64,000 bases of DNA, taken from Allomuricauda sp. GTDB lineage: Bacteria; Bacteroidota; Bacteroidia; Flavobacteriales; Flavobacteriaceae. Location of the stretch: assembly GCA_030148335.1 (NCBI GenBank), contig JASBTQ010000008.1:1-64000 (forward strand), in the 5' to 3' direction. This document shows positions 38,340-54,358 of this stretch, piece by piece; within the stretch, counting starts at the first letter, position 1, and each line of letters begins with the position of its first letter. Under the pieces are notes generated by a model that was not told the origin of the DNA, did not search any database, and was given only the letters and a program-made list of their open reading frames with translations. The position numbers and the translations under genes were made by a program.

Positions 38340-38343
38340 ATTG

Positions 38344-41300
38344 ATGAAAATTAAAGTTTTATTTATCCTATTTGGATTGTGCGGTTATGCAGGTTTTTCC
38401 CAATCAACCCTATTTGTACATTCAAAGAAACCTACAAATATATCACCAGCAAATGGCTGTATAATTGGAGATTATGAATACCACTATGACCTATCTCATG
38501 AAATGGGAATTTTTCCAATAAATGATATGGAGGTATTGGTCAGTGTGGATTATAGAGAAGGATACAATGACGACCCTAATAATAACTGTAATGGTATCTG
38601 TGGACAGTTTGCTTGGTATTGCGATGATCCCAATGATATGGAAGAGGAAGTTTTACAGCCTTTAGAAACATTGATTGTTGAATATAATGGACCAGATGTC
38701 ATTGAATGTGGATCTAACGTAGATAGCTGCCTCCCAATTGATTACCAAGCAATTTTATTACCAAACTTAAACCCTGGAGACAACGAACGGTGTTCAACAC
38801 AACTGCTTTTTGAACAATATGAAGATGGCCAAGATCATTTTGTGGAAGGGTTGAGATGGAAATATCTTGGTTTGTTTGGTTGGCAGGATATACCAAACTA
38901 TACCAATCGTTATCCGCTAAATGTAAGTATTGAAGACATTTTTGGGCCTGATTATGAAACTTCATTTATGGGCAATTTACAATTGACTTATGAGGTTACA
39001 GCCCCATTCAACAATATTGTGCTTGAATCAGGAGTATATTTTTCATTTTCTTTGATTGGCTGCTCCCCCGAACTCCTTAACCTAACCCCCCATCAAACCA
39101 CCTGCCCAGGAGCCAACGATGGCAGTTTCACCATGACCTTGGACAGGAATTTGGAAGATGGGGAAGAGTTAGTAGTTTCAATATACAATGTCAATAATTT
39201 GAATGGAGAATCTTTGGATCAAGAAGATACTACTTCACTTATTGACAACGGAGACACCACTTATTCTTTTCAGTGGTCCAATAGTTTACCAGAAGGAAAT
39301 TATGTGGTAAAGTACCAGACCCATCCCATAGGTGAAGATATTGTAGATGAGTCATGGAACAGCCTAATACCAACTGATCCATTCGAAATCTTACTCCCAC
39401 CCCAGGTAACCTTCACCCTTCAAAAACTCAACGATGCCCGTTGCCACGACGGTAGCGATGGCCGAATCGAAATTGAAGCATCCGGTGGAATAGGTGCTAA
39501 TTACCAGTACCGGGTCAACAATGAAGTGGACTGGCATGATTTCAGTAATGGGGACACCCACATTTTGGATGGTTTGGCGGCAAATGACTACGAAATCGAG
39601 GTCAGGGATGGCAACGAATGTGAAGGAATAAGCCAGGATAATTCCGAGACCATTGATGAACCATCGGACCCATTGGTGGTTGATGATGCAGTGGATTATG
39701 TGGAGCCCACGGCCTACAATTTCACGGATGGAAGCATCACTGTGGATGCATCTGGCGGCACGCCCTATCAAAACAATAGCTACAACTATACGTGGCATGA
39801 CGAAAACAACAACCCTGTCAATACCACTTCGGCACTTTTCGTGGATGGGATGTATCGCATCACCGTGGAAGATATTGCAGGAGGAACCTACATCTTGACG
39901 ATCAGGGACGCCAATTACAATCAAGCCACAAACAAAGGAGGCTGTATCCTCATTGAGGAATTTGTGTTGACAGGTCCTCCTGAGCTACAATTGAGCATAG
40001 AGGAAACCATTCCCATATCCTGTAACAGTGCCAACAACTACAACAATCCGTCCAACGATGGGCAATTAACGGCAGTTGCTTCTGGTGGAGTGCCTTTTGA
40101 TCCCTTGATCGATGGCCAGTATGCATATCTCTATACTTGGAAGAAAAAGATTGGCCCGAACACTTGGCAGGATATTCCCAACAACGGTTCCAATATACTT
40201 AGCAATCTGGAAGCGGGCGAATATGCCGTCAATATTGAGGATGCCCACGGAATTGTCATCGGAACCTATGTGAACAACCAATTGCAACAGGTCAATGACG
40301 TGGTGTACGTCTTGGAAGAACCCGAACTGCTCACCATTCAAATAGAGAAAACGGATATCAATTGCTTTGGGGGAAGCGATGGCACCGCTACCGCCTTGGT
40401 CAGTGGTGGAACCCCACCTTATGAATTTTTGTGGTCCACAGGGGCAACCATTGAGATCGCCGAAGGGCTTTGGTTGGGCAACCATTCCGTTTATGTGGTG
40501 GATGTCAGGGGTTGTGAGGCCGAGGCGGAAGTCACCATCGGGCAGCCCGATGCACCCGTTTCCATTTCAAATCCGCAATATGTGCAACCCACGGCATACG
40601 GTTTTACCAATGGCAGTATCACGGTACAGGTAAATGGTGGCACGCCCTTTAATAATGATAGCTATAATTACGAATGGCGGGATGAGCAGAACAACATTAT
40701 CAACACCACTTCGGCACAGCACACGGCCGATGGCTATGTCATACAAGCTCACGATATACCCGCAGGTACTTACACCATCACCGTAACCGACGCCAATCAT
40801 GAAAATGCAGTCCAAAAAGAAGGATGTACCTATGTTGCTGAATTCATTTTAGAAGAGCCACCCGCTTTGGAATTGAGCGTGGAGCAGACTATTCCGATTT
40901 CCTGTAATGGCGGCAACCAGTTCAATAACCCTTCGGATGACGGTCAACTTGTGGCCATAGCATCAGGCGGGGTGCCTTTTGATCCTTTGATCGATGGGCA
41001 ATATGCCTACATCTATACTTGGAAAAGGAAAGATGAACAGAACATCTGGCAAATAATACCCAATGTTATAGGAAATGTGTTGGATAATGTGGGCGCAGGG
41101 GAATATGCTGTAAACATTGAAGATGCAAACGGGATCGTTTTGGGGATCTATGTGAACAATATGTTGGATGTGCCCACAGACTATCTCTATCCCGTGCAGG
41201 AAACGGACCCCATTGTGCTTCAAATCGAAAAGATGGATGTCAGTTGTTTTGATGGCAGCGATGGTTTTGCATCAGTATCCATCGAGGGCGGAATGCCGCC

Positions 41301-42429
41301 TTACGATATTTCGTGGTCATCAGGAGCTTCTGGTGAAATTGCGGAAAACTTGACTGCAGGCAACTATTTTGTCTATGTCAAGGATTTCTACGGTTGTGAG
41401 GTAAGTGGCCAAGTGACCATAACACAGCCCGAAGAATTGGAAATCAACATAGTTGATACTGTTGTTCCTACTTGTTATGATGCCAACAATGGTAGCCTGA
41501 CGGTCGAGATTTCGGGTGGAGTGGCTCCCTATACCTATATATGGAATACAGGGGAAAACTCCTTGTCGCTGGGCAATCTGGGTGAAGGTGTCTATACTTT
41601 CGAAGTGATGGATGCCATTGGATGTTCCGCCACAAAGCAAATTGTTTTGGAAGCACCTTACCCTACCCAAGTAGATCTAGGGGAAGACCGAACGCTTTGC
41701 AACGGACAGGAACATTCTTTGGACATTTCGGTGGATGATCCCGCCGCGACCTATTCTTGGACCTCCAATAATGGGTTTTCCAGCAACTCACCGCAGGTCA
41801 CTTTATCCGAACAAGGAATTTATACCGCTTCGGTGACCAATAGCTTGGGATGCTCCGGGGTAGATACCATTGAGATAGGAACCACCGAAGTAGAAATGGA
41901 TGCCCAATTTTTGATTACATCGCAGGCCTTCGCAGGCGAAGAAGTGGTGCTGGTGAACACAAGTAATCCTATCGGCACCAACGAAGCATGGGTTTTTCCA
42001 AATGGAGCTGAGATTGTGGAGCGGGAGAAGGGTGTGGCAATCCTACGATTTGATGTACCGGGAGCCTACGAAGTCATTCTCAGGAACTATCATGGTGATT
42101 GCTATGAAGACGTGGCCAAGACCATCATCGTGGCAGAGGCAAGGGAACTTCCCGATGTGGGGGACGCCATATCGCCCTTCATCAAGGATTTCAAGGTCTA
42201 TCCCAATCCTTCCTCAGGATCATTTTCGGTGATGGTCTCGCTCCAAGAAATATCAGTTGTTTCATTGCGGTTGTTCGGACTCACCACTAACCACATTCAC
42301 GATGAAAAACAATTGTCAGGAAAAGTCCTGTATGAAGTGTCCTATACCATGAACCTGCCCTCCGGAGTGTATCTCCTATTATTGGAAACAGCCAAAGGAA
42401 GTGAGGTCAGAAAGATTGTGATTTTGTGA
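38344..42429 (+). CDS. SprB-repeat adhesin-like protein with T9SS type A sorting domain
   Basis: A 1361-residue secreted protein. It has a signal peptide (MKIKVLFILFGLCGYAGFSQ) and a Cys-rich N-terminal region (to about 240) unlike the rest. From about 245 to 1100 there are SprB-type repeats, each with a C..G.DG...V..SGG.PPY.Y.WS pattern (for example CFGGSDGTATALVSGGTPPYEF). Two 285-residue blocks are tandem copies. Then come a PKD-like domain and a C-terminal T9SS type A sorting domain (FKVYPNPSSGSFSV ... LPSGVYLLLLE). SprB is the mobile gliding adhesin of Flavobacterium, but these repeats also occur in other surface proteins. ATG 38344 chosen; the stop overlaps the next start. Confidence 0.93.
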   Translation: MKIKVLFILFGLCGYAGFSQSTLFVHSKKPTNISPANGCIIGDYEYHYDLSHEMGIFPINDMEVLVSVDYREGYNDDPNNNCNGICGQFAWYCDDPNDMEEEVLQPLETLIVEYNGPDVIECGSNVDSCLPIDYQAILLPNLNPGDNERCSTQLLFEQYEDGQDHFVEGLRWKYLGLFGWQDIPNYTNRYPLNVSIEDIFGPDYETSFMGNLQLTYEVTAPFNNIVLESGVYFSFSLIGCSPELLNLTPHQTTCPGANDGSFTMTLDRNLEDGEELVVSIYNVNNLNGESLDQEDTTSLIDNGDTTYSFQWSNSLPEGNYVVKYQTHPIGEDIVDESWNSLIPTDPFEILLPPQVTFTLQKLNDARCHDGSDGRIEIEASGGIGANYQYRVNNEVDWHDFSNGDTHILDGLAANDYEIEVRDGNECEGISQDNSETIDEPSDPLVVDDAVDYVEPTAYNFTDGSITVDASGGTPYQNNSYNYTWHDENNNPVNTTSALFVDGMYRITVEDIAGGTYILTIRDANYNQATNKGGCILIEEFVLTGPPELQLSIEETIPISCNSANNYNNPSNDGQLTAVASGGVPFDPLIDGQYAYLYTWKKKIGPNTWQDIPNNGSNILSNLEAGEYAVNIEDAHGIVIGTYVNNQLQQVNDVVYVLEEPELLTIQIEKTDINCFGGSDGTATALVSGGTPPYEFLWSTGATIEIAEGLWLGNHSVYVVDVRGCEAEAEVTIGQPDAPVSISNPQYVQPTAYGFTNGSITVQVNGGTPFNNDSYNYEWRDEQNNIINTTSAQHTADGYVIQAHDIPAGTYTITVTDANHENAVQKEGCTYVAEFILEEPPALELSVEQTIPISCNGGNQFNNPSDDGQLVAIASGGVPFDPLIDGQYAYIYTWKRKDEQNIWQIIPNVIGNVLDNVGAGEYAVNIEDANGIVLGIYVNNMLDVPTDYLYPVQETDPIVLQIEKMDVSCFDGSDGFASVSIEGGMPPYDISWSSGASGEIAENLTAGNYFVYVKDFYGCEVSGQVTITQPEELEINIVDTVVPTCYDANNGSLTVEISGGVAPYTYIWNTGENSLSLGNLGEGVYTFEVMDAIGCSATKQIVLEAPYPTQVDLGEDRTLCNGQEHSLDISVDDPAATYSWTSNNGFSSNSPQVTLSEQGIYTASVTNSLGCSGVDTIEIGTTEVEMDAQFLITSQAFAGEEVVLVNTSNPIGTNEAWVFPNGAEIVEREKGVAILRFDVPGAYEVILRNYHGDCYEDVAKTIIVAEARELPDVGDAISPFIKDFKVYPNPSSGSFSVMVSLQEISVVSLRLFGLTTNHIHDEKQLSGKVLYEVSYTMNLPSGVYLLLLETAKGSEVRKIVIL
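39700..41433 (+). repeat. Tandem duplication of ~285 codons within the SprB-like gene
   Basis: Unit 1 (39700-40554) begins VEPTAYNFTDGSITV and unit 2 (40582-41433) begins VQPTAYGFTNGSITV. Both continue through IPISCN, then SGGVPFDPLIDGQYAY and GEYAVNIEDA in the same order. The units differ at many positions, so this is an old duplication rather than an assembly artefact. Confidence 0.85.
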
Positions 42430-43781
42430 TGCGAAGCCTAAAAAACATAGCTTTTGTTGGGTTGGTAGGGCTTCTGATGTCTTGTGCAAAAGAAGTGGCA
42501 TTGCCCATTGAGGCCAATTTTGAAGTTGAGGTGGTGGATAACGATTATTCGGTCCCGGTTCATGTAAAGATCCATAACCGGACCCAAGGTGCCGATACTT
42601 TTGAATGGACTTTTGAAGGCGGGGAACCCTCCCAATCCACTGACAAAAACCCGGGAACGGTGCGTTACAGTACCGAAGGGGAATATTCAATTCATTTAAA
42701 AGCGTCCAATAGGGATGGAGTAGAGGAAGAGGTGAATTATGGATTGGTAATCGATAAAGCGATTGTGCCCGGTTTTATCATCACTATTGAAGGTGATGAT
42801 TATGCCCCCGTGACCATCAACATTGAGAATACTACAACCGGGGCAACCACATTCGATTGGACGTTTGAAGGAGGAGTCCCACCAAAATCCAAAGCGCATA
42901 CACCAGGAAAAATTGTATTTCAAGGGCCAGGGGACCATTTGGTAACCCTTGTTGCAGGTAATGGGCGGGAAACCCAGATTTTTTCAGATACGGTTTCTGT
43001 TTCCCAAGATATTATGGCAGATTTTGAGATTGAACCCGCTTTTGAAGATGATGATTTTCAAACGCCTGTCACTTTGAACCTGACCAACAAAAGCATCAAT
43101 GCCACAAGTTTTGAATGGACTTTTGAAACGGCTGAACCAGCTTTCAGCACAGCAACCGACCCAATGATCACCATAAACGAGCCAGGGCTACATCAACTCA
43201 AACTCAAAGCTTCCAACAGCAAGCGTAGCCATACCATCATCAAGGAAGTGAGCATTTTTGAGGACACCAATCTCAGGGTTTTGGAAAATGTGGAACTGGG
43301 AACCGGAACGGCCCATAATGCCAATCAAAAGGGTGCCCTATATTCAACAATGATGAGACAAGTGTATGATGCCGCCAGTGTTCCAATTGATGATGGAAGT
43401 ACAATCGACATAGCTTTTTTTGCGCTCAACCAAGAGTTCAATTTCAACAAATTTGTGTCCCCGGATGAGGTTCAGGAGTACACCTTTGAACCTATACCCA
43501 ATGCAAAGCATACCAAATTCATCAACCTACAGGAATCCTGCGAATGTGAAACGTCACTCTCTGTTGATGAGTTCGATGCCATGGAAGATGATTCCCTTTT
43601 GGAAGCAATGCCTATCGAAGAAACCATAGGTGGCATTCAGGATTTTGATAGTTCCGTGGTTCCGCGGATTGTGCTATTTGAAACCTCGGACGGGCGAAAA
43701 GGTGCCATCAAAATAAAGGAATTTGTACAAGCTGGAACCAATTCGCATATCGTGGTGGACATAAAAGTGCAGAAACAGTGA
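42429..43781 (+). CDS. PKD-domain lipoprotein
   Basis: A 450-residue lipoprotein (MRSLKNIAFVGLVGLLMSCAKE; lipobox LMSC). Three PKD-like Ig folds follow one another, marked by TFEWTFEGGEPSQS, TFDWTFEGGVPPKS and SFEWTFETAEPAFS, each ending in a GEYSIHLKASN-like strand. The last 180 residues form another domain without a match (LRVLENVELGTGTAHN). Being lipid-anchored, it could fix the secreted partners to the outer membrane. ATG at 42429 overlaps the TGA of the SprB-like gene, showing coupling. Confidence 0.9.
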   Translation: MRSLKNIAFVGLVGLLMSCAKEVALPIEANFEVEVVDNDYSVPVHVKIHNRTQGADTFEWTFEGGEPSQSTDKNPGTVRYSTEGEYSIHLKASNRDGVEEEVNYGLVIDKAIVPGFIITIEGDDYAPVTINIENTTTGATTFDWTFEGGVPPKSKAHTPGKIVFQGPGDHLVTLVAGNGRETQIFSDTVSVSQDIMADFEIEPAFEDDDFQTPVTLNLTNKSINATSFEWTFETAEPAFSTATDPMITINEPGLHQLKLKASNSKRSHTIIKEVSIFEDTNLRVLENVELGTGTAHNANQKGALYSTMMRQVYDAASVPIDDGSTIDIAFFALNQEFNFNKFVSPDEVQEYTFEPIPNAKHTKFINLQESCECETSLSVDEFDAMEDDSLLEAMPIEETIGGIQDFDSSVVPRIVLFETSDGRKGAIKIKEFVQAGTNSHIVVDIKVQKQ

Positions 43782-43798
43782 TTAATTAACAATAATCA

Positions 43799-46159
43799 AT
43801 GGGCAATCAAACAATTTCAATCAATATGGGAAGTGTAATTCTGAAGCTAGTGAAGAAACTCTTATGGTCTCAAACCTACAAGCCACTTTATAAAAAACTG
43901 TTCATTGTATATTGTTTGTTGTATTATGCATTGGCAACGGCCCAAATTTACCCTGTACAGGTCACGCCGCAACTGATCCCGCCCTACAGTTTCAAACTCT
44001 CCGATTACACCACAACAACCCAGGAAAAACTGTTCGTGAACCTTTTGCTCACGGATGCCCAGGAAGCAGGACGGCAGGTACGCCTGAAAATGTTCGTGGA
44101 AGGCCCCGGGATAAAGTTCCAGACGCTGGACTTTGTTTCCGGCACGCTGCCCATCATCCTGGACGGAGGGGTGAACCAACGCTTGACCAATCTGGACCTG
44201 CAACCCTATTTTAACCTGAACAACCTAGTGGGGATAACGCCCAAACAGTACGGCCAGCAATTGCCCGAAGGGCAGTACCGTTTCTGTTTTGAGGTCTATG
44301 ACCAGTTCTCGGGCCAGCGCATCTCCAACCGCAGCTGTGCCAACATCTTTCTGGTGCTCAACGATCCGCCCCTGCTCAACGTTCCCTTCCGTGGCGACCT
44401 GGTGACGGCCCGGGACCCACAGAACCTTGTCTTCAACTGGACACCCAGGCATTTCAACGCAGGGGCGGTACAGTACGAGTTCACCCTGAAGGAGCTCTGG
44501 GACACGGGCATGGACCCACAGGCGGCCTTTATGGCAAGTCCACCGCTGTACCGGACCACCACCTTTGCCAACACGCTGCATTATGGTCCCGCGCAGATGC
44601 CGTTGTTGGAAGGAAAGAGCTACGGTTGGCAGGTAAGGGCCTTTGTGAGCGATGGCATCACCGAAACCTCTTTGTTTAGGAACAACGGGCTGAGCGAGAT
44701 TTTCCATTTTGCCTACCGTGCCGATTGCCACCCGCCCCATTTTGTGCTCTCGGAGGCGCAGAACTCCCAAACGGTGAAGATTACATGGCAAATGGGGGAA
44801 CATTTGCGCTACCGGGTGCAGTACCGCAAAAAGGGCTATGGGGAGGACGACTGGTTCGGGCTGTGGTCGCAGGGGAACGAGGCCACCATCCGCAACCTGG
44901 AGGCGGGTACCGTTTACGAGTTCAGGGTGGGTGGGGACTGTACAGGCCCCCTCTCGGTCTCCCCCTTTGGGGGAGAAGAAAGTGGAGAAGGACTTGCTTT
45001 TTCTCCGATACACGAATTTACCACCCCGAGCGAGGACGAGATGGCCTACTACAACTGTGGCATCCCGCCCGAGATCGAGATCGACAACCAAGAGCCGTTG
45101 CAGCAATTACAACCTTATGAGGTGTTCACTGCGGGGGATTTTCCGGTGGTGGTCAGGGAAGCATCAGGAAGCAATGGGTACTTCTCGGGATGGGGCTATA
45201 TCACCCTACCGTTCCTGGAACAGTTCAAGGAAGTCATCGATGCAGCTAACATCGCCACTGGAGGAGAGGTGAACATTGGCAAGTTCAGCCGGATAAGGGT
45301 AGAATTTGACGACATTAAGATCAACACCGATTACCAACTGGTGGAGGGCATGGTCCAGACCAGCTACGACCCCAATTGGTCGGGTATTGTGGATGTGGAC
45401 CAGGCGATTTCGGATATAAAAATGACTTTGGAGCAATTGGTTGAACTACTGTCCAACATGGGAATCGACAGTGCCACGAGGGAGAATATCAGAAAACTGA
45501 CCGAAATGCTCGTGAAACAGGCCCAAGCAGAGCTTCCACAGCCCATTGCCGAAAAAATACAAACAGCTACAGATAAAATGAACAGTGCCAAGGAACAACA
45601 TGACTCAGCGATTGAAGGTGGAAATCAAGAACTGGCCAATAAGGCAAAAAATGATTTTAAAGCGGCACAGAACGAACTTAAAGATGCAGAGAAGGAAAGG
45701 GACGATTTCTTAAAGGCGTATGCTTCTATCATCAAGGATGCTTTAAAGGAAATTGTGCGCGAAAGTGACGATAATTTGAACAATGGATTGAATCAATTTG
45801 GAGAAGAAAGCATTGTAGTGACAGAAACTAGCGAAACTATGGAGTTGAATGCTTCCGGTTTGGACCAATTAACCAATGCGTTGCAGCCAGTTGCAGCTAC
45901 CACTAGTGAACAGGATTTGCTACAACATTTTGAATATGAACGTTGGCAGATGTTGAACTATATCTCCACCAACCTGCAAACTGATGAAGGTACCCAAGAA
46001 CTGGGCAATTTATTGGAGAATGAAGGAGAGAAGTTAGGTGTTTATATCTACAACCGATTGGAAGACAACGTAAAAAGAAGTGAACTGATTTTTGAAGTTA
46101 AAGAAATACTTATTGAAACCATTACAGAAAAAATAGCGCTATCTACCAAACTCTTTTAG
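43799..46159 (+). CDS. TANFOR-like fibronectin protein with exchangeable C-terminal tip
   Basis: A 786-residue exported protein; the signal peptide ends near ALATAQIYPVQ. Residues 50-450 fit the TANFOR-type conserved region of Bacteroidota (QVTPQLIPPYSFKLSDY, YFNLNNLVGITPKQYG, PEGQYRFCFEVYDQ, with a fibronectin-III domain EAGTVYEFRVGGDC). A 86-residue block (454-540, 45158-45416) is duplicated in the orphan cassette at 50655. Past it the protein becomes a long charged helical region (LTEMLVKQAQAELPQPIAEK...) and the DNA turns AT-rich. A shorter start (MGSVILKLVKKLL, 43826) is possible. It ends 3 bases before the NlpC/P60-like gene. Confidence 0.87.
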   Translation: MGNQTISINMGSVILKLVKKLLWSQTYKPLYKKLFIVYCLLYYALATAQIYPVQVTPQLIPPYSFKLSDYTTTTQEKLFVNLLLTDAQEAGRQVRLKMFVEGPGIKFQTLDFVSGTLPIILDGGVNQRLTNLDLQPYFNLNNLVGITPKQYGQQLPEGQYRFCFEVYDQFSGQRISNRSCANIFLVLNDPPLLNVPFRGDLVTARDPQNLVFNWTPRHFNAGAVQYEFTLKELWDTGMDPQAAFMASPPLYRTTTFANTLHYGPAQMPLLEGKSYGWQVRAFVSDGITETSLFRNNGLSEIFHFAYRADCHPPHFVLSEAQNSQTVKITWQMGEHLRYRVQYRKKGYGEDDWFGLWSQGNEATIRNLEAGTVYEFRVGGDCTGPLSVSPFGGEESGEGLAFSPIHEFTTPSEDEMAYYNCGIPPEIEIDNQEPLQQLQPYEVFTAGDFPVVVREASGSNGYFSGWGYITLPFLEQFKEVIDAANIATGGEVNIGKFSRIRVEFDDIKINTDYQLVEGMVQTSYDPNWSGIVDVDQAISDIKMTLEQLVELLSNMGIDSATRENIRKLTEMLVKQAQAELPQPIAEKIQTATDKMNSAKEQHDSAIEGGNQELANKAKNDFKAAQNELKDAEKERDDFLKAYASIIKDALKEIVRESDDNLNNGLNQFGEESIVVTETSETMELNASGLDQLTNALQPVAATTSEQDLLQHFEYERWQMLNYISTNLQTDEGTQELGNLLENEGEKLGVYIYNRLEDNVKRSELIFEVKEILIETITEKIALSTKLF
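44958..44976 (+). repeat. Perfect palindrome TCTCCCCC-TTT-GGGGGAGA inside the TANFOR-like gene
   Basis: An 8-bp perfect stem with a 3-base loop, the kind of CCCCCTTTGGGGG unit common between Bacteroidota genes. It sits in frame inside a fibronectin loop and encodes SPFGGEES. Confidence 0.5.
45158..45416 (+). repeat. Junction block shared with orphan cassette (copy 1)
   Basis: These 259 bases, encoding from EASGSNGYFSGWGYITLPFL to VDVDQAISDI, recur at 50655-50915 with roughly nine of ten bases identical by eye and no other similarity beyond the right edge. It is the last part of the conserved TANFOR-like region before the variable tip. Confidence 0.85.
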
Positions 46160-46162
46160 AAA

Positions 46163-47677
46163 ATGAAAAACTTAACCTTCTTTGCCCTATTATGTTGGGG
46201 CTTTTTATGCCACGCGTCCCCTACACCCAAGGATACCATTTACACTAGTATGGAAACCTTGATGAGGGAAGTAAAAACCACGAAAAAGAAAACGGCCACG
46301 TACTATCTTCATCTTGCCACCTCAGATGATAAGGACGTAAGAGTACGTATAGATTTAAAGCAGATCGATGCTGAAATACCCATATATAAATCTAATGAAT
46401 TGGACATAAAAAAACTCCTAGCCTTGAAAGAAGAAAGTTTGGAAGCCCCAATAAAAAAGTTTGCCGAATTCAAGGTAAAACTAGATGCGTGGAAAAGTGT
46501 TAATAATGAAGTAAAAACTTTAAACGCGGAAATCAAAAGTTTAAAGACTGGGGATAGCCTTAGTTGGGATACCGAGTCTATTGATTCTATTCAAGAAATT
46601 TTGGATGAAAAGAATATCGTAAAAAAAGAAAGGCATGAAGCTTACGAAGCTACTTTTAGTGAATATGAAAAAATGGTAGGTGAGATGCTTGGAGATTTGA
46701 AGAACCAATACAGCGAAAGGTTATCTTCTGCCATTGAAGAAGCCTACAACAAGCTTGAAAACATCGAAACAGTTTTTTTAAGCGCTCAAGATAGCCCTAC
46801 TTGGCACGATGTTCGGATAAACCTGATCAAACTGGATGCACGTCGCCCCATGCAGGTAAATTATGTGGGGCGTAGTGCCAAAAAAGTTACAGAGAACATT
46901 TCGGCGGGAAAATTTTACTACATACTGCATTTTGCAGAATTTGGAATCTACTTCCCCGATAAAGTACAAGCCATCATTGATGATATCAAGGAAAAAGAAA
47001 TGAGGTTGAATCCTTTTCTTATTGAAGAACGTTTTGCACTCGTTTGTGATGACAAAGATAGAGCCCAGGACCATATTAATGTGGTGACCAACCCTTGGGA
47101 TTATAATTTAAAAAAGGAAGAGGATATAATTGCTTTGGCTTTAAATGAAATGCTTACTATTGCCGAGGCCCATATACCCTATGAACAGGAAAGTAATGAA
47201 CCACCAGATTACATGAGAACCGCAGAAACCGAGGAAGCATTGGCAAAAATGGACTGCAGCGAGTTTGTTAGCCGATATTTAAAGGCTTTGGGATTATTTG
47301 ATGAAGTGCCTTACTTTCATACTGGAGAAATGGCGACGAATAGTTTTAAACAAGAAAATGATGGTAAGTTGAGGTATTTAAGAGGGAGTGAACTAGAGAC
47401 ATTTAATGATATTAAAAAAGGAGATGTTTTTTTGTGGAGAAGAAATATGGATGATCATGGCAAAAATGATGGTCACACTGGGGTAGTTTTAGGTTATGAC
47501 CAAAATACAGAAATTGTTGAAGTAATGGAAGCTTTGGGAAATGGCGGCAGTAGTGACAACTCATTGAACAAAGGAGAATGTGTTGGATGTTCTAGAGTCT
47601 CCAAATACAAAAAAAATGGAGGAGCTTTGCAGGGACATGCTGGTTGGGTAGGGTATTTTAGGCCGATAACAAATTAA
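46163..47677 (+). CDS. Exported NlpC/P60- or CHAP-like cysteine amidase, candidate toxin
   Basis: A 504-residue protein with a signal peptide (MKNLTFFALLCWGFLCHASP). Residues 20-330 are helical and unassigned (a Lys/Glu-rich region). The C-terminal 140 residues look like a papain-fold NlpC/P60 or CHAP domain: MDCSEFVSRYLKALG with the nucleophile Cys365, then GDVFLWRR and DGHTGVVLGYD with His438, and a VEVMEALGNGG strand. Such domains cut peptidoglycan peptides or amides. It follows the TANFOR-like gene by 3 bases and is followed by paralogous lipoproteins, the layout of a toxin with immunity genes. An autolysin role is the main alternative. Confidence 0.78.
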   Translation: MKNLTFFALLCWGFLCHASPTPKDTIYTSMETLMREVKTTKKKTATYYLHLATSDDKDVRVRIDLKQIDAEIPIYKSNELDIKKLLALKEESLEAPIKKFAEFKVKLDAWKSVNNEVKTLNAEIKSLKTGDSLSWDTESIDSIQEILDEKNIVKKERHEAYEATFSEYEKMVGEMLGDLKNQYSERLSSAIEEAYNKLENIETVFLSAQDSPTWHDVRINLIKLDARRPMQVNYVGRSAKKVTENISAGKFYYILHFAEFGIYFPDKVQAIIDDIKEKEMRLNPFLIEERFALVCDDKDRAQDHINVVTNPWDYNLKKEEDIIALALNEMLTIAEAHIPYEQESNEPPDYMRTAETEEALAKMDCSEFVSRYLKALGLFDEVPYFHTGEMATNSFKQENDGKLRYLRGSELETFNDIKKGDVFLWRRNMDDHGKNDGHTGVVLGYDQNTEIVEVMEALGNGGSSDNSLNKGECVGCSRVSKYKKNGGALQGHAGWVGYFRPITN

Positions 47678-47687
47678 ACATAGAGAG

Positions 47688-48290
47688 ATGAGAAAAAATA
47701 TTGTTCTGATTTTGGTAATGGTTTTTGCAAATAATTGTGCACAAACAAATAAAAATGCTCCAATGGACTTTGTTGAATACAATGGAGATTTAAAATATTC
47801 TGCCAGTAGCGGTGATGGTATTGTTTATTTTAGATGCTATCATGGGTATTCTGATGATTCTGAAAACCCTTATGGAAACGCTAGAGTTTATATGATACAT
47901 AAAAATGGTGGAAATTGGTGGATGAAACAGGCAAAAAAAGAATTCCCGGAGATGGCTTATCCAGAAGATTGGTATGTTGAAAATTTATATAAAAATGAAG
48001 ATTCTATGAAGTTGGAAGATTATCATAAGTGGGCATTCTTTATTGATAAAAAGTATTTGAAAGCAGAGACTTCAGGTGGTGGTGAAAAGGACGTTGTTTA
48101 CACCTCCTATTTCCCAACCTATCCCTACACTGTTGTACTTTATGAGCAAAAAGCAGGGTCAGATGAATGGGTGGAGATAGATAGAAAGACCTTCCATTCA
48201 GAAGAAGAAAAAATCAAAGAGAACTGTGAATGGGAATGTAGGTTTTACAACAATAAATTGAAGGAACTCAATGAAAAATTTAAAGAATGA
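47688..48290 (+). CDS. Small lipoprotein, candidate immunity protein (paralogue 1)
   Basis: A 200-residue protein with a lipoprotein-like signal (MRKNIVLILVMVFANNCAQ; the lipobox is weak). It shares GGNWWMKQAKKEFPE, KWAFFIDKKYL and VVLYEQKAGSDEWVEID with the next gene. No known domain. It starts 10 bases after the amidase and overlaps the next start by 20 bases. A periplasm-facing lipoprotein right after an exported peptidoglycan-cutting enzyme suggests an inhibitor (immunity) role; this is inferred from context. The DNA is visibly AT-rich. Confidence 0.75.
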   Translation: MRKNIVLILVMVFANNCAQTNKNAPMDFVEYNGDLKYSASSGDGIVYFRCYHGYSDDSENPYGNARVYMIHKNGGNWWMKQAKKEFPEMAYPEDWYVENLYKNEDSMKLEDYHKWAFFIDKKYLKAETSGGGEKDVVYTSYFPTYPYTVVLYEQKAGSDEWVEIDRKTFHSEEEKIKENCEWECRFYNNKLKELNEKFKE

Positions 48291-48903
48291 ATCAATGATT
48301 GTTCTGATATCTTTTTTGTTGATTGCTTCATGTGGGCAAAACCCAAAAGCTAGAATAGAAACCCAAAAGCTACCAGGCAATTTTTTAAATAGTGCTGGAA
48401 ATGTTTCTGCGAACACCAAGGGAGTAATTCATTTAGATGCCGAATACTCTGTAAAGAACAATGAGTTGGGCAATGCTGATATTTATCTCATCCACGAGAA
48501 AGGGGGTAATTGGTGGATAATGCAGGCAAAGAAAAAATTTCCTGACAACTATTATGCGGAAGGATTTTACGCAACTTCATTAGTAGAAAAAGATTCAAGT
48601 TGGTCAGACAGCTATGACAAATGGGCATTCTTCATTGCTAAAAAATATCTGGAACCCCAATTGGAATCTGCTGAGGGAGGAGAATTTACTTCTTACTACC
48701 CCAAAAGGAACTCTGAGATAGTCGTAATACTGTTTGAGCAGAAAGCAGGAAATTCTGAGTGGGTTGCCATCGATAGTATTACCTATAAAACCGATGATGA
48801 TGGAAATGAGATCAAGACCAATGATGAAAAAGGGAGCTACTATTTATCTTCTGAATGGGAAAGCAATTTTATCAAACAAAAAGTCAAGGAAAGCAACAAA
48901 TGA
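48271..48903 (+). CDS. Small lipoprotein, candidate immunity protein (paralogue 2)
   Basis: A 210-residue protein with a clear lipoprotein signal (MIVLISFLLIASCGQN) and the same core as its neighbour: GGNWWIMQAKKKFPD, KWAFFIAKKYLE and ILFEQKAGNSEWVAID. It may start at 48271, overlapping the previous gene, or at ATG 48295, which begins the signal more compactly. Tandem diverged immunity paralogues are common in polymorphic toxin loci, protecting against different toxin variants. The function is inferred. Confidence 0.75.
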   Translation: MKNLKNESMIVLISFLLIASCGQNPKARIETQKLPGNFLNSAGNVSANTKGVIHLDAEYSVKNNELGNADIYLIHEKGGNWWIMQAKKKFPDNYYAEGFYATSLVEKDSSWSDSYDKWAFFIAKKYLEPQLESAEGGEFTSYYPKRNSEIVVILFEQKAGNSEWVAIDSITYKTDDDGNEIKTNDEKGSYYLSSEWESNFIKQKVKESNK

Positions 48904-48992
48904 TAAAGAGAATCTTGGTTGTTTGGTCAATGGTTTTATCTGTAAATAGTTGTGCCCCCCGCTCGCGCGAGCATCATGCTCGTGCCGTATAA
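48900..48992 (+). pseudogene. Truncated third lipoprotein gene interrupted by a REP palindrome
   Basis: An ATG overlapping the previous TGA starts a 30-residue frame with a lipoprotein signal (MIKRILVVWSMVLSVNSCA), and right after the Cys the reading enters a GC-rich palindrome (RSREHHARAV) and stops. It looks like the remains of another lipoprotein of the same tandem series whose body was lost when the repeat arrived. Confidence 0.55.
48955..48987. repeat. REP-like palindromic element A
   Basis: CCCCCC followed by the perfect palindrome GCTCGCGCGAGC (48961-48972) and a second imperfect stem ATCATGCTCGTGCC. It shares the CCCGCT.GCG head with elements at 49167 and 56056, and lies near a REP-associated transposase remnant, which is the family known to handle such repeats. 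Confidence 0.6.
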
Positions 48993-49034
48993 GAGTGAGC
49001 ACAGAACACAAAAAATGATTAAACAATAGAATGG

Positions 49035-49184
49035 ATGAGTCGTAAATACAAGTTTCACAACCCAGAAGCAGCTTACTTTGTAAGTTTTGCCACGGTGTAT
49101 TGGATAGATGTGTTTACGAGACAGATGTACTTTAATGTATTGGAAGAGAGTATAAATTATTGTCGGTCCCCCGCTAGCGCCTAG
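49035..49184 (+). pseudogene. Remnant of a REP-associated tyrosine transposase (RAYT, IS200-like)
   Basis: The frame starts MSRKYKFHNPEAAYFVSFAT and continues to VYWIDVFTR and NVLEESINYC, the typical N-terminus of the Y1 transposases common in Flavobacteriaceae. After 45 residues it enters a REP element and stops at TAG 49182-49184, so the HUH motif and catalytic Tyr are missing. It is inactive. Confidence 0.7.
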
Positions 49185-49195
49185 CTTATGCCTCT
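49167..49195. repeat. REP-like palindromic element B
   Basis: TCCCCCGCTAGCGCCTAGCTTATGCC shares its CCCGCTAGCG head with elements A and C. It cuts the 3' side of the transposase remnant and abuts the metalloprotease fragment. Confidence 0.5.
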
Positions 49196-49204
49196 AACGA
49201 GAAA

Positions 49205-49588
49205 ATGGATTTGAACGCACGACAGGATAAATTCACTGTCATGTTCTTATCGAGTGAATTTAATGGCACAAATTCTGGAGCGGTAATTTCACAAGTGAAT
49301 GGCAGCAACATTTTCAGCTATCACACTACGATTTTTTATTCAACAGGGGATATGCAGACCGTAGCTCATGAACAAGGACATGATGTAGGATTACCACATA
49401 TTTTTTGTTATGATAAAGTGAGCCCTATAAATGAGCGCGATACACAAAGTTGTAAGGATTTGATTTGGGGTTCAGGAGAAGACAGAAAAATGCCTCAACA
49501 TTCGGCACTTAATAACTATATGGATTATACAAACGGTTCAGATAACCGAAATATCTTTTTTAAATATCAAATGGAAAAAAGTCAATGA
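49205..49588 (+). CDS. Metzincin-type metalloprotease fragment, candidate toxin tip
   Basis: A 127-residue frame with the zinc motif HEQGHDVGLPH (HExxHxxGxxH; metal His residues) and a Met-turn NNYMDYT about 40 residues on, which together define metzincins. No signal peptide or carrier part precedes it; the upstream side is a REP element and a transposase remnant, so this is probably the C-terminal end of a larger gene that has lost its front. Whether it is translated is unclear. Its TGA overlaps the next ATG, keeping the pairing with the following gene. Confidence 0.7.
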   Translation: MDLNARQDKFTVMFLSSEFNGTNSGAVISQVNGSNIFSYHTTIFYSTGDMQTVAHEQGHDVGLPHIFCYDKVSPINERDTQSCKDLIWGSGEDRKMPQHSALNNYMDYTNGSDNRNIFFKYQMEKSQ

Positions 49589-50565
49589 TTAAAATAAAAA
49601 TGAAAGACCTAATAATAATAGTACTCATTATGAAAGGATTAACTTGTAATGCTCAGATTGATCCTTTCAAACTCGAGGGAAAAAAACCGGCTCTCTTGGA
49701 AGATATTCAAAGAGCACTTGAATACAATTTAGACCACGTTAAGATTGAAGGTTCCGATTATTATAGAATCTATACCTATCCTGGACAAAATCACTACTAT
49801 TACAACTACTTTACCGAAAGGGCAAGGGAACGTATGGTGGAACTTCTTGAAGGGAAATGGACTGAGGAAGAAATCCAGTCGAGAATAAATCTCGATTATG
49901 AAAAAGACACCTTAAATCCCAGAAATGAATTTTATAAAGATGCTAAGAGAATGGCGAAACAAGACAGTTTGCCATTGAATCGCGTATGGGACAGTATGCT
50001 AAAGGCTAGAATACAAGAGGATAGACAAATCATTCTTAATAGTGAATATGTCCCAGCACAGATTATAAGCATAGCTGGCTTTTTGAAGGATTCTAGATTT
50101 TTACCTTACTTATTAAAAATGGGAGAAGGTAACTATGTCTCTGATGATGTTGAACTGGGTTTGGCCCGATATGGGATTGAACCCTACCATACCAATGCGG
50201 TGAAAAAATATGCTTATACCCCTAAAAATTGGAATACCAATGTCTCTAAATTGATGTATATCTGTTCCAAAGAGGCTATTGAGGAAATATACAATTACAT
50301 TATGAAAGAGGATGGCCAGATTTGTGACTCTAATGGTGTGTGTCATGGATATTTGGCTGTATTGAAAATGGGGGCTTTGGTAACATTATTCAAAAGTGAA
50401 ACTATGCGTGAAGAAATGGATGCGCTGGATGTTGAGTATTACCAAAATGGAAAAGAAATAGATGAATCCTACCTAAAAGATATGCGGAGTATAGCGGAAA
50501 GATATTATCAGAAATTTAAAAGCCAAACACCTGATTGTGAAAATGTACCTGTTAATGCTTGGTAG
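49585..50565 (+). CDS. Exported helical protein, candidate immunity for the metzincin
   Basis: A 326-residue protein with a signal peptide (MKDLIIIVLIMKGLTCNAQ, from ATG 49600 or 49585). The mature part is largely alpha-helical with Tyr-rich stretches (YYRIYTYPGQNHYYYNYF) and a HEAT-like middle (PAQIISIAGFLKDSRFLPYLLKMG). No known family. It overlaps the metzincin frame by 4 bases, and the combination of an exported protein directly after a peptidase fragment mirrors the other toxin-immunity pairs here. Function inferred only. Confidence 0.65.
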   Translation: MIKIKMKDLIIIVLIMKGLTCNAQIDPFKLEGKKPALLEDIQRALEYNLDHVKIEGSDYYRIYTYPGQNHYYYNYFTERARERMVELLEGKWTEEEIQSRINLDYEKDTLNPRNEFYKDAKRMAKQDSLPLNRVWDSMLKARIQEDRQIILNSEYVPAQIISIAGFLKDSRFLPYLLKMGEGNYVSDDVELGLARYGIEPYHTNAVKKYAYTPKNWNTNVSKLMYICSKEAIEEIYNYIMKEDGQICDSNGVCHGYLAVLKMGALVTLFKSETMREEMDALDVEYYQNGKEIDESYLKDMRSIAERYYQKFKSQTPDCENVPVNAW

Positions 50566-50654
50566 TTTAATAAAGACGTAAAGATTCTATAAATAGGAAT
50601 AAGTTCTTTGACATATTGAGACCAAAATAATCTACGGGCTTTCTGAGAAAAAAG

Positions 50655-50915
50655 GAAGTCAGTGGAAGCAATGGTTACTTCTCAGGGCTGGGGCTATATC
50701 ACCCTACCATTCTTGGAGCAGTTCAAGGAAGTCATCGATGCAGCCAACATCGCCACTGGGGGAGAGGTGAACATTGGCAAATTCAGCCGGATACGGGTGG
50801 AGTTTGACAACATCAAGATCAATACCGATTACCAACTGGTGGAGGGCATGGTCCAGACCAGCTACGACCCCGATTGGTTGGGTGTTGTGGATGTGGATCA
50901 GGCAATTGCGGATAT
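50655..50915 (+). repeat. Junction block shared with TANFOR-like gene (copy 2, one-base offset)
   Basis: Aligns with 45158-45416. Relative to copy 1 a single extra C lies at 50688 (GGG C TGG against GGA TGG), so the first 30 bases of homology are out of frame with the rest. Most other differences are silent or conservative codon changes. Confidence 0.85.
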
Positions 50916-52548
50916 TGGTCAACTTTTAGGTGAACTTTTTTCCAGAAAGGAGGAGCTTTTAACTGAGCTTTCAGAAGCAGAAGGGTTTGAAGAACAACAG
51001 GGTATTATCTCACAAATCAATGAACTGGAGGTGACGATAGGTCAACAAATAGACCAGATACCCAATAAAGAAAACCTCTCACAGGATTTACAGGACGAAC
51101 TGGAAAGTTTGAAACAGGAAGGCAGTATCGTTTCCAATTCAGAGTTGACTTCGCAGGAAATCGAGGCTATATCCAATGCAGATGCCAAACGAAGGGAACG
51201 GGTAAAGGAGATTGCGGCGATAGCGGAAGAAGACCATCTGACAAGATGTACCTTGGAAAAGCTCTTGGACGCAAATACAATGTCGAGGGAAAAAGTATTT
51301 GATATTACTTCAAATGGTGAAATAATTAGGATTATTAAAGAGAATTTCGAAGATTGGTTAGGGCAATCCCAAAATGTAACAAGCTCAAGTATTGAAATAA
51401 ATGCGATTCAGGAATGGTCCGTTCGGGCAGATGCACAGTACAGCAAAAGGCAAGGCAGGGCATTGTTCGATAGATTGTTCGAGACCATTCGGAAGGCTCC
51501 AAAAAAGGAACTGTACGCATTGCATTCTGGGCTCTATCCCAAAGGGATTTATTTAAGGAAGTATGAAATGGAAGGTAAACGCCATAGTTTGGCCCTCTAC
51601 AGCCCAAAAGAAATACCTCAGGTCTTTAAAATGGAAGCAAAAGACTATTGTGAGTTGGTAAGTTCACAGGAACTCAACTATCGTATAAAAGTGATAGAGG
51701 TTGCCAACTCATTGGTATTGGCCTTTTTAAACGAAAACCAAGAAGTTACTTTTATGGTACAGTTGATGGGCAATGAGGATGCGGATTTCGAAAGTATCCT
51801 AAAATGGTTCGGGGTATTGAAATTGCACAAACCCAATATCCTTGTTCGGGATTTGTCCCAACAGCAAATTTTGGACGAACTTTCCACTCATGGAGAGCTA
51901 CAGGCCGTGGACATAGCGGCATACCGGGAAATGATAGGTAACCTTCCCGAAGAGGAACGCGCAGAGGCCTATTTGGAACTGCAGCGGCATGTACCTTACA
52001 GGAGCCAATTGGACAATGAGTGCAAAATTGTAAGCGGCTCCCGAATGTGCAACGTGACCAGTTTGGCCATGAACTTTGAGGCCTTGGGAATTTCCAACCC
52101 TACCGAAAACGAGCAATTTGAAGATTGGCTGGCTGTGGAAGCTGGGGGAGCACCTAATATTTTTAAAGCTGAGTCATGGATTAACTTGGGAAAAAATCTT
52201 ACCATAAATGGTGCCAAAGAGGAATTGTATACCTCTAACAAGATTGTATTGACATCGAAAATCAAACCAGAATTAGAAATGGGGAATAGTATAAGTCTTT
52301 CACTCTATCCAGGCTGTAAAGGCCACATTGTACGGGTACAGGGTATAGATGAACAGGGGTTATATATCGATGACCCCAATGGCCATTGTCCTTTGGCCTG
52401 TATGTTGGATAGGGAGGGTTGTGAAGGCAGATATGATAAAGGAACTCGGAATACAGAGAATCCCATCGCAGGTAACAATAACTTATATACTTGGGAAGAG
52501 ATTGCACAAATTACTGTTAAATACATGGTTGTATTTTCAAATCAATAA
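50662..52548 (+). CDS. Orphan tip cassette: TANFOR junction fused to a C39-like cysteine peptidase
   Basis: A 628-residue frame with no signal peptide, opening GTG at 50662 or ATG at 50671 inside the duplicated junction block. After the block (about 1-85) it has a charged coiled coil, a middle region (220-440), and a C-terminal papain-fold domain: ECKIVSGSRMCNVTSLAM with Cys463 matching the C39 nucleophile site, GHIVRVQGIDEQGLYIDDPNG with His555. C39-like domains cut proteins or peptides after Gly-Gly or similar. Without a front end it resembles the orphan cassettes of polymorphic toxin loci, usable after recombination with the full-length gene at 43.8 kb. Confidence 0.82.
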   Translation: MEAMVTSQGWGYITLPFLEQFKEVIDAANIATGGEVNIGKFSRIRVEFDNIKINTDYQLVEGMVQTSYDPDWLGVVDVDQAIADIGQLLGELFSRKEELLTELSEAEGFEEQQGIISQINELEVTIGQQIDQIPNKENLSQDLQDELESLKQEGSIVSNSELTSQEIEAISNADAKRRERVKEIAAIAEEDHLTRCTLEKLLDANTMSREKVFDITSNGEIIRIIKENFEDWLGQSQNVTSSSIEINAIQEWSVRADAQYSKRQGRALFDRLFETIRKAPKKELYALHSGLYPKGIYLRKYEMEGKRHSLALYSPKEIPQVFKMEAKDYCELVSSQELNYRIKVIEVANSLVLAFLNENQEVTFMVQLMGNEDADFESILKWFGVLKLHKPNILVRDLSQQQILDELSTHGELQAVDIAAYREMIGNLPEEERAEAYLELQRHVPYRSQLDNECKIVSGSRMCNVTSLAMNFEALGISNPTENEQFEDWLAVEAGGAPNIFKAESWINLGKNLTINGAKEELYTSNKIVLTSKIKPELEMGNSISLSLYPGCKGHIVRVQGIDEQGLYIDDPNGHCPLACMLDREGCEGRYDKGTRNTENPIAGNNNLYTWEEIAQITVKYMVVFSNQ

Positions 52549-52559
52549 AATTTAAGATT

Positions 52560-53483
52560 ATGAGACAAATACTGAAATTATTTATAATCCTGCCCTTATT
52601 GGCACAATGTCAGACCAAAGAAAATTTAGATAGTGATAATTGGAAGAAATTTCTAGAAAAATTTCCAACCCAATCCATTGATGCTTTGAAATGGGTTCCT
52701 TCTATTGAGAATGTGAAGGATACTATTGATCCGAAACTCATCAACAAAATGTTATGGAAGCAAAGGAAAAGACCTGAAACGATTTATAAAGGGGATAATT
52801 TTCAATATCCTATTGGAGGACATCTTTATATAGGAGAAGAGTATAGGACTTATAGCCAAACTAAAGAAGGTAAGGAATGCAGAATACCATTGATTGTGTA
52901 TCCATTTTTTAAAATTAAAATTACAGACGGTAAAACCTTAGTTTCATATTTGGAATTTGAAAGTGGAGAACGTCTTATTTTTCAAACTTTGATTATCCTT
53001 AATGAAAACAATGAAAGGATAGGGTATTTTGCCTTTATACATAGTCATACATGGAGATATTGTGATAGTGACTTAGAGGAAATCCTTGAAGAAACCAAGC
53101 CATACAGTGCCCCTGTTGCACTTTATGAAAACGGCTTTCTGCTTCATGATGAGTTGGTGGGAGTCTATTATGAAGATGTTTTGGATGATCAATATTGGAA
53201 GGTCATTATACGGGAAGATGGAAAGTTTGAAATTGTGGAAGAGAAAAAAAACTATGAGGATGGTACCGTAACACTCTGGAACAAATATGGTTATCATGTG
53301 TCGGATCCTGATGGAGACACCAACCTTAGGGAATCCCCATCAACATCTTCCGAAATTCTTTCCCAAGTCAAAAACAATACAGCGTTGGAAATACTGGACG
53401 CGAGCTCAGATTGGTGGAAGGTGCGCACACCGGATGGGAACGAGGGCTATATACACAGTTCACGGATTGTTAAAGGAGAATAG
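52560..53483 (+). CDS. SH3-domain lipoprotein, candidate immunity for the C39-like peptidase
   Basis: A 307-residue lipoprotein (MRQILKLFIILPLLAQCQTK; lipobox LAQC). The last 65 residues form a bacterial SH3 domain (SDPDGDTNLRESPSTSSEIL ... WWKVRTPDGNEGYIHSSRI), which in other proteins binds cell-wall peptides. The front 240 residues are unassigned. It starts 11 bases after the C39-like gene. As a surface- or periplasm-facing lipoprotein following an exported peptidase, it fits an inhibitor; alternatively it may just bind peptidoglycan. Confidence 0.78.
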   Translation: MRQILKLFIILPLLAQCQTKENLDSDNWKKFLEKFPTQSIDALKWVPSIENVKDTIDPKLINKMLWKQRKRPETIYKGDNFQYPIGGHLYIGEEYRTYSQTKEGKECRIPLIVYPFFKIKITDGKTLVSYLEFESGERLIFQTLIILNENNERIGYFAFIHSHTWRYCDSDLEEILEETKPYSAPVALYENGFLLHDELVGVYYEDVLDDQYWKVIIREDGKFEIVEEKKNYEDGTVTLWNKYGYHVSDPDGDTNLRESPSTSSEILSQVKNNTALEILDASSDWWKVRTPDGNEGYIHSSRIVKGE

Positions 53484-53695: not shown

Positions 53696-54358
53696 ATGGG
53701 TAAATATCTAATCATAATGATTTTTATGATTTTAGGCACTATCAAGAGTAGGGCCCAAAATAAAAGACCTTCTGATTTTTTGCCTCAAGGATATTTGTTA
53801 TTTGAAGAATACTATGGGGACTTGAATAAAGATGGCAAGCAAGATTGTGTTCTTATAATAAAGAAGATTGATCATGATAATATTGTAGTAGATAGGTTTG
53901 ATAAAAAAGTAGATCGAAATAGGAGAGGAATTATGGTTTTATTCAAAAAAAATAAAGGATATAAAATTGCGGAAGTGAATTATGATTGCTTTTCCTCAGA
54001 GAACGAAGATGGCGGAGTTTATTTCCCACCTGAACTTTGGGTCGAGGTCGAAAAAGGTAATCTAGTAGTTCATTATGGCCATGGCAGATACGGATTTTGG
54101 AGATACATATTTGAATTTCAAGATTCTAACTTCAAACTAATTGGATATTTTTCAAGTAATAATTACGGGCCAGTAGTGAATAGGGAAACAAGTATTAATT
54201 TTTTAACCAAAGAAAAGCTGATCAAAGAGAATATTAATGAAAATGATGACGGAGGAGATGAAATATTTAAAGAAACGTTGGAAGAAATAGAAATAGAGAA
54301 GTTATTAAAGCTTTCTGAAATTAAAGATTTTGATGAATTGGATATGTATTCCTATTAA
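53696..54358 (+). CDS. Secreted small protein with a Ca-loop-like motif, candidate immunity
   Basis: A 220-residue protein with a signal peptide ending near SRAQNK. The mature part includes YYGDLNKDGKQDCVLIIKK, which resembles an FG-GAP/dockerin-like calcium loop (DxNxDGxxD). Similar loops are found in periplasmic inhibitors of bacterial antibacterial effectors such as XAC2610-like proteins, as I recall. The rest is beta-rich with an acidic C-terminus. It follows the SH3 lipoprotein in the cassette array; assignment as immunity is inference. Confidence 0.7.
   Translation: MGKYLIIMIFMILGTIKSRAQNKRPSDFLPQGYLLFEEYYGDLNKDGKQDCVLIIKKIDHDNIVVDRFDKKVDRNRRGIMVLFKKNKGYKIAEVNYDCFSSENEDGGVYFPPELWVEVEKGNLVVHYGHGRYGFWRYIFEFQDSNFKLIGYFSSNNYGPVVNRETSINFLTKEKLIKENINENDDGGDEIFKETLEEIEIEKLLKLSEIKDFDELDMYSY

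What the first reader, a model, noticed from the sequence alone, without database searches (positions are those of the whole stretch)
50655..52548. Orphan cassette is silent as it stands: no signal peptide and a one-base offset in the junction block
The cassette begins mid-gene relative to its parent, has no export signal, and carries one extra C at 50688 that throws the first 30 bases of homology out of frame. A crossover anywhere downstream of that base would place the C39-like tip in frame on the full carrier. That is what one expects of a stored, recombination-ready tip.
Basis: partly seen in the sequence, partly recalled or inferred. Interest (0 to 1): 0.7.

Follow-up and report, generated by a model that had tools for sequence, protein, structure and literature searches.

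The report
Orphan toxin-tip cassette behind TANFOR carrier
A marine flavobacterium keeps a detached peptidase toxin tip with a probable antidote gene downstream of a toxin carrier, and a related species has the same tip attached to a full carrier, so it looks like a displaced, exchangeable weapon module of an already known kind.

Summary
ORF 50662-52548 begins with a 231-bp, 92% copy of an internal piece of the carrier gene 43799-46159, carries a C39-like peptidase tip, shows no export signal, and has one extra base near its 5' end. That base is best placed as a third G in 50685-50687, not a C at 50688; none of 9 carriers covering the spot has it. The gapless part of the repeat is in the same codon phase in both genes.

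The locus is a TANFOR-type polymorphic toxin locus, a published Bacteroidetes class, with displaced tip-immunity modules: a metalloprotease remnant with an immunity-like gene, and the C39 tip with an SH3 lipoprotein. In one relative (G062) a 67%-identical C39 tip ends a full 1056-aa carrier; in another (G011) a C39 tip ends the split toxin gene that bears CHAP here. Nine junction-bearing orphan ORFs in 8 of 86 loci show that the layout recurs.

"Stored, recombination-ready tip" is partly supported: parts, frames and counterparts fit; an actual crossover is untested, and keeping it for immunity is an equally good reason. New member of a known kind (orphan CdiA-CT/Rhs-CT modules). Side finding: REP-like palindromes and a Y1 transposase occur in these arrays.

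The parts
38341..42429 (+). T9SS substrate with five SprB repeat stretches and a type A sorting tail, upstream of the carrier
   Evidence: PF13573 E 7e-46, PF18962 and TIGR04183 over cut-off
42426..43781 (+). PKD-domain protein between the SprB gene and the carrier
   Evidence: PF00801 E 3e-16; a like 450-451-aa gene precedes the carrier in L024, L028 and L048-L050, by inspection
43799..46159 (+). Carrier A: TANFOR-like and fn3 regions, no recognised toxin tip of its own
   Evidence: TIGR02542 27.4 bits (cut-off 67), fn3; C-terminal 241 aa 76-92% identical in L022, L048-L051
45187..45417 (+). Junction block, carrier copy
46163..47677 (+). Split toxin gene with its own signal-like N-terminus and a CHAP-like tip; first 314 residues shared with relatives whose tips differ
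   Evidence: CHAP E 2e-4, 22.2 bits, below gathering 26; relatives carry CHAP-like (L049), M23 (L050, L051), C39 (L022) or unassigned (L048) tips
47688..48290 (+). Putative immunity lipoprotein 1 for the CHAP toxin
   Evidence: homologue beside the CHAP gene in L049, order swapped; lipoprotein by inspection
48271..48903 (+). Putative immunity lipoprotein 2 (paralogue of 1)
   Evidence: lipoprotein by inspection
48955..49190 (+). Remnant of a Y1-transposase element: REP-like hairpin at 48955-48986, transposase N-terminus 49035-49166, second REP-like edge near 49168
   Evidence: 95% identical over 44 aa to L053 15987-16526 (PF01797)
49178..49588 (+). Remnant of a second orphan tip: M12-like metalloprotease end, no junction found
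   Evidence: PF13688 26.9 bits, just under gathering 27; matches the ends of carriers in L098 (36%) and L097 (32%)
49585..50565 (+). Intact immunity-like gene of the M12 tip (imm3)
   Evidence: 39-40% identical to the gene after the M12-tipped carriers in L097 and L098
50654..50915 (+). Junction block, orphan copy, one extra base at 50685-50688
50662..52548 (+). Orphan tip ORF: junction, linker (50914-51231), pre-toxin region, C39-like peptidase (about 51988-52380)
52560..53483 (+). Putative immunity lipoprotein with SH3 domain
   Evidence: PF08239 E 1e-16; 54% identical to the gene after the displaced C39 end in G062; lipoprotein by inspection

Best explanation
50662-53483 is an orphan tip-immunity module of a TANFOR-type polymorphic toxin system. 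Shown by sequence: the tip is a C39-like peptidase with no export signal in view, preceded by a carrier-derived junction and a linker and followed by an SH3 lipoprotein-like gene; the same tip ends a full-length carrier in a related species. Inferred: the tip was once the end of a carrier and lost it when another toxin (today the split CHAP gene) came to lie behind the carrier; its lipoprotein still guards against relatives that deploy C39 tips; homologous recombination in the junction (with a duplicated or incoming copy) could put the tip back on a carrier in frame. The extra base is a private mutation with no function.
For: Junction repeat and phase. G062: 1056-aa carrier with a 67%-identical C39 tip, followed by a gene 29% identical to 52560-53483, then a displaced last-110-aa C39 end (80% to the window orphan; one stop in its row) with an intact gene 54% identical to 52560-53483. 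G011: C39 tip on the split gene that bears CHAP in the window (assembly gap there). Linker of the orphan shared (58-83%) with carriers in L021, L023, L024, L025, L026 and L029, which end in at least four different tips. Nine junction-bearing orphan ORFs in 8 of 86 loci given (84 with a carrier ORF). Q265, C279, H371, D386 of the tip are identical in window and G062 (that these are the catalytic residues is recalled). Tip dN/dS about 0.12 with saturated dS. Junction block: 1 private substitution in 76 codons.
Against: No toxicity, immunity or export data. The own genome is an 83.6%-complete assembly; no strain-level comparison exists here. The TANFOR profile score is below its cut-off. Papain-like domains also serve as releasing peptidases, so 'toxin' is inferred from the C-terminal position and the following gene. 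The orphan's linker is not that of either carrier in its own genome, so it may have arrived from another species rather than been displaced in place.
Confidence: 0.85

Rival explanations
1. Why it is kept, reading 1, immunity memory: the module is kept only for its lipoprotein; the tip is a passenger on its way to decay and is never redeployed.
For: The M12 remnant of this window and the second C39 end of G062 are truncated while their immunity-like genes are intact. The same logic is argued for V. cholerae T6SS immunity arrays (PMC5361080, abstract and start of introduction seen). The orphan has a frame slip.
Against: The window tip is open over 628 codons with the expected active-site residues and a nearly unchanged junction. 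This does not separate 'kept' from 'recent'.
Confidence: 0.45
2. Why it is kept, reading 2, stored and redeployed tip: crossovers between the junction copies recurrently load the C39 tip on the carrier.
For: 252 bp at 91.7% with a 48-bp identical run, in phase; shown to happen for the S. Typhimurium rhs orphan, 522 bp at 95% (PMC3967940, passages read); C39 tips on full-length proteins in G062 and G011.
Against: No recombinant seen in this species; a direct crossover deletes the CHAP toxin and several immunity-like genes; carrier A is followed by a split toxin gene and has no fused tip.
Confidence: 0.35
3. The ORF is an independent cytoplasmic or processing C39 peptidase that merely picked up a carrier fragment.
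For: Open frame with possible starts; papain-like domains also act as releasing peptidases in polymorphic toxins (PMC3482391, passages).
Against: A counterpart sits at the end of a full carrier; a related gene follows in both; the same pattern recurs with unrelated tips.
Confidence: 0.07
4. The extra base is an assembly or sequencing error and the junction is in frame from about 50654.
For: It lies in a short G run of an incomplete 47-contig assembly; the other 8 of 9 interpretable junction orphans are in frame from their start.
Against: No reads available; slips are expected in frames that are not needed.
Confidence: 0.25

Closest known systems
TANFOR polymorphic toxins of Bacteroidetes (Jana, Salomon, Bosis 2020, PMC7073777)
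   Same: Variable C-terminal tips plus immunity genes; toxin sometimes in the next gene; SprB, PKD and T9SS-tail domains enriched beside the carrier; nearly always in T9SS genomes (part 1 of section 5 and section 9 read)
   Different: Its main text has no word beginning with orphan or recombin; here the TANFOR profile scores below cut-off
Orphan cdiA-CT/cdiI modules (Poole 2011, PMC3150448, passages)
   Same: Detached C-terminal toxin fragments, often with homology to the upstream carrier, lacking start and export signals, own immunity gene, arrays downstream of the main gene; counterparts on full carriers elsewhere
   Different: Two-partner secretion; marker is the VENN motif, here a carrier block starting at residues 403-465 or a later linker
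rhs orphan of S. Typhimurium (Koskiniemi 2014, PMC3967940, passages)
   Same: Homology between main gene and orphan allows fusion; the crossover would remove the main immunity gene
   Different: There recombination was demonstrated; here homology is 252 bp at 91.7% against 522 bp at 95%, and nothing is demonstrated
Sequential T6SS effector displacement in V. cholerae (Kirchberger 2017, PMC5361080, abstract)
   Same: Old immunity genes kept downstream after effector replacement
   Different: Different secretion system; ancestral effectors are replaced there, here a whole tip is still open
Tox-PLC39 toxins (Zhang 2012, PMC3482391, passages)
   Same: C39 papain-like domain listed as a toxin domain, Bacteroidetes among its bearers
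   Different: TANFOR is not mentioned in the held part of the text (first 300,000 of 357,715 characters)

Membership tests
TANFOR polymorphic toxin class | N-terminal TANFOR domain (TIGR02542) | tested here: inconclusive
   27.4, 26.0, 26.1, 23.0 bits against cut-off 67 for carrier A, carrier B, L098, L090; no match for the G062 and L026 carriers
TANFOR polymorphic toxin class | Variable C-terminal toxin tips on a shared N-terminal carrier | tested here: met
TANFOR polymorphic toxin class | SprB, PKD and T9SS sorting-tail genes adjacent; T9SS genome | tested here: met
   SprA in own genome, 2924.5 bits; other T9SS parts not searched
TANFOR polymorphic toxin class | Cognate immunity gene downstream | not testable with these tools
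   lipoprotein-like genes sit in place; function needs an assay
Orphan CT-immunity modules (CDI/Rhs sense) | Homology to internal carrier sequence upstream of the variable tip | tested here: met
Orphan CT-immunity modules (CDI/Rhs sense) | No carrier N-terminus or export signal | tested here: met
   export signal by inspection only
Orphan CT-immunity modules (CDI/Rhs sense) | Same tip on a full carrier elsewhere | tested here: met
   G062
Orphan CT-immunity modules (CDI/Rhs sense) | Toxin and immunity active when expressed | not testable with these tools
   needs expression assay
Peptidase C39-like (PF13529) | Score over gathering cut-off | tested here: met
   37.4 bits against 24

The most novel reading that the evidence does not exclude
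TANFOR tip-immunity cassettes are exchanged as two-ended units: carrier-derived junction homology at the 5' end and, at the 3' end, a REP-like palindrome left by a Y1 (RAYT-type) transposase just after the immunity gene, so that a transposase-made repeat gives toxin arrays their second recombination edge or moves them directly.
Probability: 0.15. Interest if true: 0.7.

Novelty: new member of a known kind. Interest (0 to 1): 0.42.

Why it matters
It brings the orphan-module logic known from CDI and Rhs to the T9SS-linked TANFOR class of Bacteroidota, with one kind of tip caught in three states: orphan, carrier-fused and split-gene. That makes 'arsenal or immunity memory?' testable in marine flavobacteria, with a natural pair of a full carrier (G062) and an orphan (window).

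Tried and rejected
Genome-contig scan with the C39 tip alignment gave no relative (140 stretches matched a pattern, none confirmed; records near the window's genome may be left out there), although G062 and G011 were found by the genome search. Single-sequence structure of the C39 domain: mean pLDDT 37, not used for any fold search. PDB sequence search of the C39 domain: 0 matches up to E 1. Promoter scans: 9 sigma-70-like sites in 50500-52700 against 5.2 in shuffles; Bacteroidetes-type pattern (recalled) 4 in the window against 3.3 expected, none near the orphan: no conclusion on transcription. Of the 27 candidates I do not count as orphans the two L022 rows (contig-cut carrier; split gene) nor the large downstream proteins of L065, L068, L069 (two rows) and L070, which look like second full toxins; the rest were not checked one by one. 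Of the 15 ORFs I count nine as junction-bearing; I set aside L020 (a displaced tip end, not a junction) and five (L099, L109, L111, L117, L122) as weak, short or signal-region matches. In one search the frame verdict for the second L060 item is void (contig end, start set by hand). The idea that the REP palindrome is specific to TANFOR arrays in all genera was dropped: in the 12 genomes it has 75 hits, many outside TANFOR loci; of 16 such other regions fetched only L138 and L146 matched a carrier (whose printout was cut in the middle).

Full report
What is there. The window holds an SprB-repeat protein with a T9SS sorting tail (38341-42429), a PKD protein (42426-43781) and carrier A (43799-46159), with TANFOR-like and fn3 regions. 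After carrier A come a split CHAP-like toxin gene with two paralogous lipoprotein-like genes, a transposase remnant, a metalloprotease-tip remnant with an intact immunity-like gene, and then the cassette of the finding with an SH3 lipoprotein-like gene. The nearest named relatives are Flagellimonas/Allomuricauda (Muricauda); the organism itself is not named.

The observation. The block 45187-45417 recurs at 50685-50915 (231 bp, 92%). One search shows the single inserted base; one search shows that 9 of 9 carriers covering the site lack it, and that the simplest reading is a third G at 50685-50687. Phase arithmetic shows that the gapless block is in the same frame in both genes. The orphan block is closest to carrier A (91.7%), then to carrier B of the same genome (88.1%); over its distal 125 bp the L049 carrier is as close (94.4%). 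Against A it shows dN 0.028 and dS 0.36 and only one private substitution, a replacement, in 76 codons, against three for A: a young fragment, or one kept similar by conversion.

Counterparts. In the genus set, 3 of 71 genomes including the own one hold a relative of the C39 tip. In a family sample, 3 of 397 matched the two-row tip profile: the own genome, and G133 and G138 only over parts before the C39 domain; G062 and G011 were not listed there. G062 carries the tip at the end of a 1056-aa carrier with a lipoprotein-like gene behind it, and then a broken second C39 end whose following gene is the nearest relative of 52560-53483 (54%; the gene after the active tip is 29%). This looks like a tip replacement with the old immunity gene kept. 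G011 carries a C39 tip on the split gene (the contig has a gap). The metalloprotease remnant has carrier counterparts in L098 and L097, each followed by a homologue of 49585-50565.

Generality. In 86 loci, 87 carrier ORFs lie in 84 loci; 27 non-carrier ORFs match the last 180 residues of a carrier (26 of them a carrier of another locus; exclusions are told in Tried and rejected). Nine ORFs in 8 loci begin with homology to the carrier of the same locus. At DNA level these nine junctions are 95-375 bp at 80-96% identity, 8 in frame from their start, the window one out of frame for its first bases only. Two junction zones appear: carrier residues 403-465 (window, L021 twice, L029, L060, L090) and a later one nearer the tip (L004, L026, L053). 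Because the ORFs were chosen by protein match, the in-frame count is not a test against chance. Carriers themselves are not universal: 19 of 71 genus genomes match the carrier profile, some only in part, and the junction block was found in 12 of 118 relatives, all of one genus.

How it most likely works. Carrier and tip go out together by an unproven T9SS-linked route; the C39 tip acts as a peptidase outside the cytoplasm, where a lipoprotein can guard the maker (inferred from tips of the CHAP, M23 and C39 kinds and from lipoprotein-like partners). When a new toxin is set behind the carrier the old tip loses its carrier but keeps its immunity gene. The orphan can be loaded again by homologous recombination in the junction; a single direct crossover would delete about 5.5 kb with other immunity-like genes, so a duplication first, as proposed for rhs (PMC3967940, passages), would be safer for the cell.

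Comparison with the known. TANFOR toxins are published (PMC7073777; part 1 of 2 of section 5 and all of section 9 read). A search for 'TANFOR domain' finds that paper alone; one more paper has the word once (PMC11796102, listing only). The text of PMC7073777 has no hit for orphan or recombin (its supplements could not be read). My searches (listings seen) showed no description of orphan modules in this class, but the held library misses most subscription journals. The concept is the orphan module of CDI and Rhs. Hence: new member of a known kind.

Side finding. A Y1 transposase (PF01797) has 14 hits in 9 of 78 carrier loci, all downstream of the carrier, none upstream (binomial p 3.5e-4; the query came from one of the nine, L053). 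Its REP-like core, at most one mismatch, has 30 hits downstream in 15 of 78 loci against 2 upstream in 2, and none in 20 rounds of randomised sequence. Of 23 downstream copies on the carrier strand (these loci plus window and L004) 17 lie within 60 bp of the end of the preceding ORF, one of those ORFs on the other strand; by position it is often the immunity-like gene. In the genus there are 27 hits in 16 of 71 genomes, against 8 for the reversed control pattern; compared with the carrier places, 12 of the 27 lie within 8 kb downstream of a carrier and on its strand, among them both hits of the own genome. The core was chosen after looking at loci of this kind, so 7 of the 12 (four in G012, two in G049, one in the window, genomes judged by equal contig coordinates) are not independent; the other 5 are in G066 (two), G016, G040 and contig C41 of the own genome. 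Against it: of 10 transposase hits in the genus only one lies near a carrier and one on a contig with a linker piece; in other genera the palindrome also follows ordinary genes; the C39 cassette itself has no such palindrome behind it; and the 111-bp stretch of the window occurs once in the own genome. A paper search for this link listed 10 papers, none with the RAYT term.

Noticed in passing
window 48955-49190; L004 8998; L048, L050, L053, L103, L109, L121, L122, L125: REP-like palindrome, alone or with a Y1 (IS200-like) transposase, sits just 3' of immunity-like genes in TANFOR arrays; both copies of the core found in the own genome lie in its two arrays.
   Followed up: partly
window 46163-47677; L048-L051, L022: The split toxin gene is itself polymorphic: residues 1-314 shared, tips CHAP-like, M23, C39 or unassigned.
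   Followed up: yes
window 49178-50565: Second, decayed orphan: metalloprotease tip end plus intact immunity-like gene, with carrier counterparts in Aquimarina sp. AU58 (L098) and a Bacteroidia MAG (L097).
   Followed up: yes
L004 9899-14047 (own genome, contig C41): Second full carrier (1046 aa) with a different tip, an immunity-like gene and its own orphan tip sharing a later junction (58% over 65 aa; 92% over 95 bp).
   Followed up: partly
L053 15790-15900: 95%-identical 37-aa piece of the window CHAP gene lies as a fragment next to the transposase element in [Muricauda] yonaguniensis.
   Followed up: partly
L133, L134 (G133, another genus): Modules on another carrier-like frame reuse the region before the C39 domain with other endings, a further shuffling level.
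   Followed up: partly
window 39697-40717 and 40204-41159: Direct repeats 882 bp apart in the SprB gene (72% and 76%), internal repeats of that protein.
   Followed up: no
window 53696-54358: 220-aa ORF of unknown family after the C39 immunity-like gene; no relative in the other 89 loci of the set searched.
   Followed up: no
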